Made by a program: the position numbers and the translations under genes
Part shown: piece after piece, positions 18,101 to 18,427 of the stretch
Position numbering within the stretch: the first letter of the stretch is position 1
Layout: each line of letters starts with the position of its first letter
Notes under the pieces: model-generated
Told to the model about the DNA's origin: nothing
Seen by the model: the letters and a program-made list of their open reading frames with translations, nothing else
Database searches by the model: none
Assembly (NCBI RefSeq): GCF_000003605.2
Contig: NW_003142305.1
Span: 187,283 to 251,282 of the forward strand
DNA length: 64,000 nt
Origin: Saccoglossus kowalevskii
Taxonomy: Eukaryota; Hemichordata; Enteropneusta; Harrimaniidae
Direction of reading: 5' to 3'

Positions 18101-18427
18101 TCTGAAATACCAAATCTCCAACCTAAGGGTGATAGCGCTGTCGATGTACCACAAGAGATATGCAAACCGGAAGCGATTCATATAGTGAATTATGGCCGAA
18201 ATAAAATTTGCATTTCTATTGACAAAGTACCGCAGTGTCCAGTAAGATGCAGAAAAGAATTGTTCAGAAATAAGAAACTTGATTTTCATTGCGTTAAATC
18301 AAACAAATCGTTTCCCTTATTGTGGCAAATGGTTACCTCGAAACAAGCATTTGATGATAAGCTGGCGACAATGAGGTCTGATAAGTCTGCAAGTGTAGAC
18401 ATTCATGATAGTTGCCAACCAATATAA
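15106..18427 (+). CDS. TNF-superfamily ligand B: collagen stretch, TNF domain and vitellogenin-tail-like C terminus
   Basis: Predicted 426-residue type II membrane protein. Exons, all in phase: 15106-15354, 15523-15598, 16603-16656, 17066-17169, 17313-17394, 17712-18427. ATG 15106 is the first AUG in frame; ATG 15133 (MSSKKRAS) is an alternative. Transmembrane helix about residues 26-48; CQC at 102-104; eight Gly-X-Y triplets at 106-129, six of them in a 54-nt exon typical of collagens. The TNF domain spans about 170-310 with PIAHLEAS, PGKYYVYSQV and GTFIGAMFL. No clear furin site is seen, unlike genes A and C, so it may stay membrane-bound. After the TNF domain an unusual 115-residue tail in the same exon carries six cysteines (339-423). 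The EDA-like architecture suggests the same receptor class. AATAAA follows at 18575. Confidence 0.85.
17395..17711 (+). repeat. Intron made almost entirely of compound tetranucleotide microsatellite
   Basis: The last intron of TNF gene B (317 bp) consists of consecutive blocks of TTTC (to about 17528), TTCC (to about 17580), TTCA (to about 17637) and TTTA (to about 17692), flanked only by the splice sites. Neighbouring blocks differ by one base in the motif. The open frames across it, in either direction, are low-complexity artefacts. Confidence 0.97.
18161..18424 (+). other. Vitellogenin C-terminal-like cysteine module in TNF ligand B
   Basis: Residues 339-426 of ligand B have the pattern CKPEAIHIV, KICISIDKVPQCPVRC, KKLDFHCV and a final DSC. 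From memory of the family this is the layout at the extreme C terminus of vitellogenin/apolipophorin-type proteins: a cysteine, CFS..PVP.C...C, then FHC, then a last cysteine after about 40 residues. No intron separates it from the TNF domain. The assignment is pattern recognition and needs a profile search. Confidence 0.5.

What the first reader, a model, noticed from the sequence alone, without database searches (positions are those of the whole stretch)
18161..18424. TNF ligand fused to a vitellogenin C-terminal-like cysteine module
Seen: after the closing TNF strand, the same exon continues for 115 codons with six cysteines patterned C, KICISIDKVPQCPVRC, DFHCV, DSC. Known (from memory of the family): the extreme C terminus of vitellogenins has a matching CFS..PVP.C...C and FHC layout. 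A TNF ligand with such a tail would be a new domain architecture and might add lipid/lipoprotein or matrix association or a covalent cap on the trimer.
Basis: partly seen in the sequence, partly recalled or inferred. Interest (0 to 1): 0.8.

Follow-up and report, generated by a model that had tools for sequence, protein, structure and literature searches.

The report
TNF ligand with vitellogenin-like tail
An animal gene for a collagen-stalked, ectodysplasin-like TNF signal protein appears to carry, fused to its end, the same six-cysteine module that closes the yolk protein vitellogenin in the same genome; the fusion looks real in the DNA, but its job is unknown.

Summary
A six-exon gene (15106-18427) encodes 426 aa: a hydrophobic segment, a short collagen stretch, a TNF domain closest to human EDA, then an uninterrupted 115-codon extension with six cysteines. 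The vitellogenin idea survives testing. In the 572-Mb own genome the extension's best match besides itself is the last exon of a vitellogenin gene, Vg1. Vg1's module in turn finds the extension. Cysteine spacing is 15-8-3-13-40 (extension), 19-8-3-13-39 (Vg1), 19-8-3-13-41 (second vitellogenin, Vg2) and 8-3-13-38 (five cysteines of honeybee vitellogenin). A profile of these three, without the extension, picks the TNF frame at E 6.5e-6 among 957 frames, next 1.2. Against it: single genome-wide E-values are weak (0.23, 0.15), Vg2 does not find the extension, and Pfam has no match. Seven other TNF-domain ends examined stop 1-14 residues after the last strand. I judge it a new domain architecture of a known ligand family; a matrix- or cell-surface-holding role is inferred, not shown.

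The parts
15106..15354 (+). exon 1: start codon, cytoplasmic part, hydrophobic segment (about residues 26-50, by eye), juxtamembrane
   Evidence: splice sites and frame
15523..15598 (+). exon 2: stalk with a minimal RYQR (R-x-x-R) site and CQC, start of collagen repeat
   Evidence: furin reading by eye
16603..16656 (+). exon 3: collagen repeat GPPGPRGEAGRKGDNGAQ
   Evidence: Pfam Collagen residues 106-136, E 1.4e-4, below that family's curated cut-off
17066..17169 (+). exon 4: end of collagen repeat and linker
17313..17394 (+). exon 5: start of TNF domain (VPIAHLEA, by eye)
17712..18427 (+). exon 6: rest of TNF domain, linker, cysteine module and stop in one exon
17783..18067 (+). TNF domain by Pfam PF00229 (residues 213-307)
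   Evidence: E 2.3e-7; genome match at the same place; closest single-domain solved match human EDA-A2, E 2.6e-9
18068..18160 (+). linker of 31 residues with N-glycosylation sequon N317
18161..18424 (+). vitellogenin C-terminal-like six-cysteine module (residues 339-426)
18575..18580 (+). AATAAA about 150 bases after the stop, possible polyadenylation signal

Best explanation
This is an ectodysplasin-like, collagen-stalked type II TNF ligand whose last exon continues into a module homologous to the C-terminal six-cysteine module of vitellogenins. Shown: the open frame, the TNF domain, and the shared cysteine layout and residues with two vitellogenin genes of the same genome and with honeybee vitellogenin. 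Inferred: the TNF domain forms a trimer, so each ligand would carry three disulfide-held modules on 31-residue linkers. As the C-terminus of a TNF-family trimer lies at the membrane-side base (recalled), the modules would sit near the collagen stalk and leave the receptor-binding flanks free. They would most likely act as an extra binding site that holds the ligand on matrix or cell surface. Because the tail is only 29% identical to Vg1, the fusion is probably old rather than a recent copy. I put the homology at about 0.85 and the holding role at about 0.35.
For: Own-genome search with the 118-aa linker plus tail gave 3 matches: self, the last exon of Vg1 (E 0.226, 27%), and an ankyrin-like frame (0.76, judged by eye). 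Vg1 is a vitellogenin by Pfam: Vitellogenin_N down to 2.3e-16, Vit_open_b-sht 8.9e-27, VWD 9.6e-8. Reciprocal search with the Vg1 module gave 3 matches: self, Vg2 (0.008), the TNF tail (0.153). Vg2 is a vitellogenin by Pfam: Vitellogenin_N 7.4e-33, Vit_open_b-sht 1.2e-7, VWD 8.6e-7. Tail-Vg1 alignment score 80: 0 of 20000 shuffles reach it, cysteines held fixed or not. Tail-bee score 61: 18 of 20000 with cysteines fixed, 0 of 20000 without. BLASTP tail-bee E 3e-5 for that single comparison. Of 653 window frames the TNF frame scores best with the bee module, 61 against 42 for the next. The profile of Vg1+Vg2+bee without the tail gives the TNF frame E 6.5e-6 in 957 frames, next 1.2. A profile of tail+Vg1 ranks bee vitellogenin first in the PDB, E 0.011, next 1.5. 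EDA-like TNF domain and collagen stretch.
Against: The tail alone finds nothing in Pfam or by phmmer in the PDB. Genome-wide E-values with the tail are weak. The Vg2 module finds Vg1 but not the tail, and tail-Vg2 scores only 42. The first spacing differs (15 against 19). In one search the profile contains Vg1, so that hit is not independent of it; and phmmer with the end of Vg1 (VWD end plus module) matched bee vitellogenin over the VWD end only, not the module, so such searches are weak even between vitellogenins. The codon-usage test favoured another frame. An AATAAA lies inside the tail at 18200. No transcript, ortholog or structure was available.
Confidence: 0.65

Rival explanations
1. 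The module is a general extracellular disulfide module, related to C-terminal cystine knots or other secreted proteins, that vitellogenin and this TNF gene acquired separately; the resemblance says nothing about vitellogenin as such.
For: CASP16 authors call the predicted honeybee vitellogenin C-terminal domain a CTCK (passages of PMC12750033). C-x3-C is shared with the VWF CTCK numbering given in the abstract of PMC8626975 (seen in the listing). The bee module has a sub-threshold Pfam match to Chondroitin proteoglycan 4 (E 0.011, 16.7 bits, cut-off 32.7).
Against: In this genome the tail and the Vg1 module return only each other, Vg2 and one ankyrin-like frame, though only the best candidates are scored and intron-split copies can be missed. 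No cystine-knot family was reported for the tail at E up to 10.
Confidence: 0.25
2. The tail links trimers: its cysteines pair between ligands, as CTCK domains pair in VWF, making hexamers or larger clusters.
For: CTCK-like context; the VWF CTCK is important for dimerization (abstract of PMC8626975 in the listing).
Against: The tail has an even number of cysteines, enough for three internal bonds, and it lacks the closing C-x-C. No data on assembly.
Confidence: 0.15
3. The tail is not in the mature message: transcripts end or are spliced before or within it.
For: AATAAA at 18200 inside the tail. The codon-usage test gave no support. Seven of seven other TNF-domain ends examined stop 1-14 residues after the last strand.
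Against: No stop before 18425, and the vitellogenin-like residues run on to the last cysteine (VDIHDSC against VDVHTEC), which needs translation to be kept.
Confidence: 0.08
4. A cysteine-rich extension that resembles vitellogenin by chance or convergence.
For: Single E-values of 0.15-0.23; weak match to Vg2.
Against: Four of five spacings agree within 0-2 residues, cysteine-fixed shuffles against Vg1 fail (0 of 20000), and the tail-free profile gives E 6.5e-6.
Confidence: 0.07

Closest known systems
Ectodysplasin A (EDA), TNF superfamily
   Same: Type II layout by eye, short collagen repeat, TNF domain whose best single-domain solved match is human EDA-A2
   Different: EDA ends soon after the last strand of its TNF domain (recalled); here 115 more codons with a six-cysteine module. 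Only a minimal R-x-x-R site in the stalk.
Vitellogenin C-terminal module (behind the VWD domain): honeybee 9enr chain A 1700-1768 and two vitellogenins of this genome
   Same: Cysteine spacing 8-3-13-38 to 41; K-x-C (bee and Vg1), V-x-x-C, F-[HY]-C; V-D-[IV]-H-x-x-C shared with Vg1
   Different: The rest of vitellogenin (lipid module, VWD) is absent; here it follows a TNF domain. First cysteine spacing 15, not 19.
C-terminal cystine knot (CTCK) of VWF type
   Same: C-x3-C in the middle; a C-terminal disulfide module
   Different: Six cysteines instead of eight (VWF numbering in the listing), and no closing C-x-C in the tail (Vg2 has one)

Membership tests
TNF superfamily ligand | TNF homology domain | tested here: met
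   Pfam TNF 31.2 bits, cut-off 23
Ectodysplasin-like TNF ligand | Collagen repeat in the stalk | tested here: inconclusive
   Pfam Collagen E 1.4e-4, 22 bits, below the cut-off of 27.2; GPPGPRGEAGRKGDNGAQGPPG read by eye
Ectodysplasin-like TNF ligand | TNF domain closest to EDA | tested here: inconclusive
   Best single-domain match EDA-A2 E 2.6e-9, but other EDA chains (8e-8) and APRIL (9e-8) are close, and a fused APRIL/BAFF-type construct summed to 3e-13 over three domains (60 rows shown, the cap). No tree was built.
Ectodysplasin-like TNF ligand | Trimer, type II membrane topology, furin release | not testable with these tools
   hydrophobic segment and RYQR seen by eye only
Vitellogenin C-terminal module | Six-cysteine spacing | tested here: met
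   15-8-3-13-40 against 19-8-3-13-39 and 19-8-3-13-41; four of five spacings within 0-2, the first differs by 4
Vitellogenin C-terminal module | Profile similarity above background | tested here: met
   E 6.5e-6 in 957 frames with a tail-free profile, next 1.2
Vitellogenin C-terminal module | Same fold | not tested
   23 requests met a full queue; two jobs were accepted but not finished when last asked
Vitellogenin (whole protein) | Vitellogenin_N, open beta-sheet and VWD domains | tested here: not met
   Pfam finds none of them in the 426-aa protein at E up to 10
C-terminal cystine knot (CTCK) | Closing C-x-C and match to a cystine-knot profile | tested here: not met
   tail ends DSCQPI; no Pfam match of the tail at E up to 10

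The most novel reading that the evidence does not exclude
A class of EDA-like TNF ligands that took up the vitellogenin C-terminal module long ago and uses it as a third targeting part (beside membrane anchor and collagen stalk), perhaps sharing a binding partner with circulating yolk protein, so that yolk-protein physiology and TNF signalling meet at one receptor or matrix site.
Probability: 0.2. Interest if true: 0.8.

Novelty: new variant of a known kind. Interest (0 to 1): 0.6.

Why it matters
TNF ligands usually end at the TNF domain (general knowledge), so a conserved disulfide module behind it would be a new way to place or cluster such a signal. It would also show that the terminal module of vitellogenin, for which I found no established function in the passages read, can move to other proteins. 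Finding its partner in the small ligand could reveal what it does in vitellogenin.

Tried and rejected
Tail in Pfam and by phmmer in the PDB: nothing. Relatives in viral contigs: 1 and 39 pattern matches, 0 confirmed. No metazoan collection was on hand, so orthologs could not be sought. Codon-usage test: failed on the TNF domain too, trained on compositionally biased vitellogenin exons. C286 match: an ankyrin-like frame by eye. CTCK membership: not met. Lipid association and 'cap': no evidence.

Nine literature searches showed no TNF-vitellogenin fusion among the rows listed: 10 of 71 listed; 15 of 15; 15 of 22; 2 of 2; 15 of 67; 5 of 5; 12 of 20; 12 of 45; 3 of 3. Only listings were seen, except passages of PMC8727950, PMC12843592 (outline and abstract), PMC12750033, PMC4861306, PMC7949091, PMC9918506. 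The honeybee structure paper PMC12214520 is not held. The mitochondrial contig C4830 was read to name the organism; no phylum was settled.

Full report
What is there. The gene has six exons with GT-AG junctions and an unbroken frame of 426 codons before the stop. By eye, residues 26-50 are a membrane segment. Pfam gives TNF (E 2.3e-7, residues 213-307), a sub-threshold collagen match (106-136) and a sub-threshold C1q match (0.086). The best single-domain solved match of the TNF part is human EDA-A2 (E 2.6e-9), with other EDA chains and APRIL close behind. A search of the own genome with the TNF part at E up to 1 returned only this gene's two exons. The last exon holds most of the TNF domain, a 31-residue linker and an 88-residue tail, residues 339-426.

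The tail against vitellogenin. Against it the tail gives BLASTP E 3e-5 for that one comparison. The local score is 61, reached by 18 of 20000 shuffles with cysteines held fixed and 0 of 20000 free shuffles; an earlier run gave 4 of 5000 and 0 of 5000. Of 653 window frames of 40 aa or more, the TNF frame scores best (61, next 42).

The own genome. A search of 572 Mb with the linker and tail gave three matches: itself, C4444 (E 0.226) and C286 (0.76, an ankyrin-like frame by eye). C4444 is the last exon of a vitellogenin, Vg1. Of eight pieces scanned by Pfam, three gave Vitellogenin_N, one the open beta-sheet domain, two VWD, one a sub-threshold DUF1081 match, and the module piece only a sub-threshold Mcm10 match (0.02). 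The reverse search with Vg1's module gave itself, C20 (0.008) and the TNF tail (0.153). C20 carries a second vitellogenin, Vg2: of six pieces scanned, two gave Vitellogenin_N (best 7.4e-33), one the open beta-sheet, two VWD, and the module piece nothing. Vg2's module found itself in two exons and Vg1 (6e-5), not the tail.

Layout. Spacings between cysteines are 15-8-3-13-40 (tail), 19-8-3-13-39 (Vg1), 19-8-3-13-41 then 1 and 2 (Vg2), 8-3-13-38 (bee, five cysteines seen). Tail and Vg1 share 29% identity, including all six cysteines and VD[IV]H near the end. A profile of the three vitellogenin modules without the tail was run against 957 frames: the window, seven other loci, and three loci that repeat this gene. 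The TNF frame came first with E 6.5e-6, listed four times because it is in four sources; the next was 1.2. A tail-plus-Vg1 profile ranks bee vitellogenin first in the PDB (0.011, next 1.5); this test contains Vg1 and is not independent of it. phmmer with the end of Vg1 (VWD end plus module) matched bee vitellogenin over the VWD end only, not the module, which shows how weak single-sequence searches are for this module.

Uniqueness. Three other TNF-domain ends in the window stop 2, 2 and 14 residues after the last strand, and four elsewhere in the genome stop 10, 3, 1 and 5 residues after it (sequences, counted). I did not examine L006 and L007 for a C-terminal end. The module was found in two vitellogenins and this gene only, but the search scores only the best candidates and exon-split copies could be missed.

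Limits. No transcript, no relative from another species and no structure. The structure queue was full at 23 requests; two jobs were accepted and not finished when last asked. Codon usage did not help: another frame of the tail scored higher, and the TNF domain failed the same test. An AATAAA sits inside the tail at 18200, another at 18575 after the stop. The weak pair with Vg2 and the genome-wide E-values of 0.15-0.23 mean that the case rests on the reciprocal finding, the spacing and the profile test together.

Mechanism. Inferred: three modules per trimer at the membrane-side base, beside the collagen stalk, away from the receptor faces. EDA's receptor binds across the convex outer surface of single protomers (passages of PMC9918506); that the C-terminus lies at the base is recalled. 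The likeliest role is holding the ligand on matrix or cell surface. Linking of trimers through cysteines is possible but less likely, because the tail's six cysteines can all pair internally and the closing C-x-C of a cystine knot is missing. The honeybee domain is called CTCK by CASP16 authors; it was predicted with high confidence but not visible in the map, likely because it is flexibly attached (passages of PMC12750033). One insect paper describes conserved cysteines at vitellogenin C-termini with proposed structural roles only (passages of PMC4861306).

Age. Local scores are 80 for tail-Vg1, 61 for tail-bee, 42 for tail-Vg2, 112 for Vg1-Vg2, 87 for Vg2-bee and 68 for Vg1-bee (the bee piece is shorter, so its scores are not strictly comparable). 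The tail is about as far from Vg1 as Vg1 is from bee vitellogenin, so a recent copy is unlikely; an old fusion or fast change fits.

Noticed in passing
window 5205-8970 and 20731-27100: Two or three further TNF-like genes seem to flank this one (membrane exons at 5205 and 20731 by eye; TNF-domain exons at 7980-8967 and 25654-27090), a small cluster; none of the three C-terminal ends seen has the tail.
   Followed up: partly
L011 (C4444:246061-248316, minus strand): In Vg1 the VWD domain seems to be interrupted by a frame of 752 codons rich in a repeated cysteine unit (about ERRDEVSRQDCEELRRRENR), lying between pieces that match Pfam VWD positions 1-53 and 123-154.
   Followed up: no
window 17395-17711: Intron 5 is almost wholly a run of four-base repeats (TTTC, TTCC, TTCA, TTTA) directly before exon 6.
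   Followed up: no
L025 and L026 (C4830, 17037 bases): Mitochondrial contig: by eye atp6-cox3-nad3-nad4L-nad4-nad5-cob in one direction, nad6 and cox1 on the other strand. Organism not identified.
   Followed up: partly
window 45487-45885 minus; 59795-60166 plus: A C-type lectin exon (Pfam 2e-5) and an exon with a TFIID 31 kDa (TAF9-like) match (6.9e-10).
   Followed up: no
L020 (C20:1-2232): Long tandem repeat open in several minus-strand frames (GNKEPRWATKCQG-like units) downstream of Vg2.
   Followed up: no
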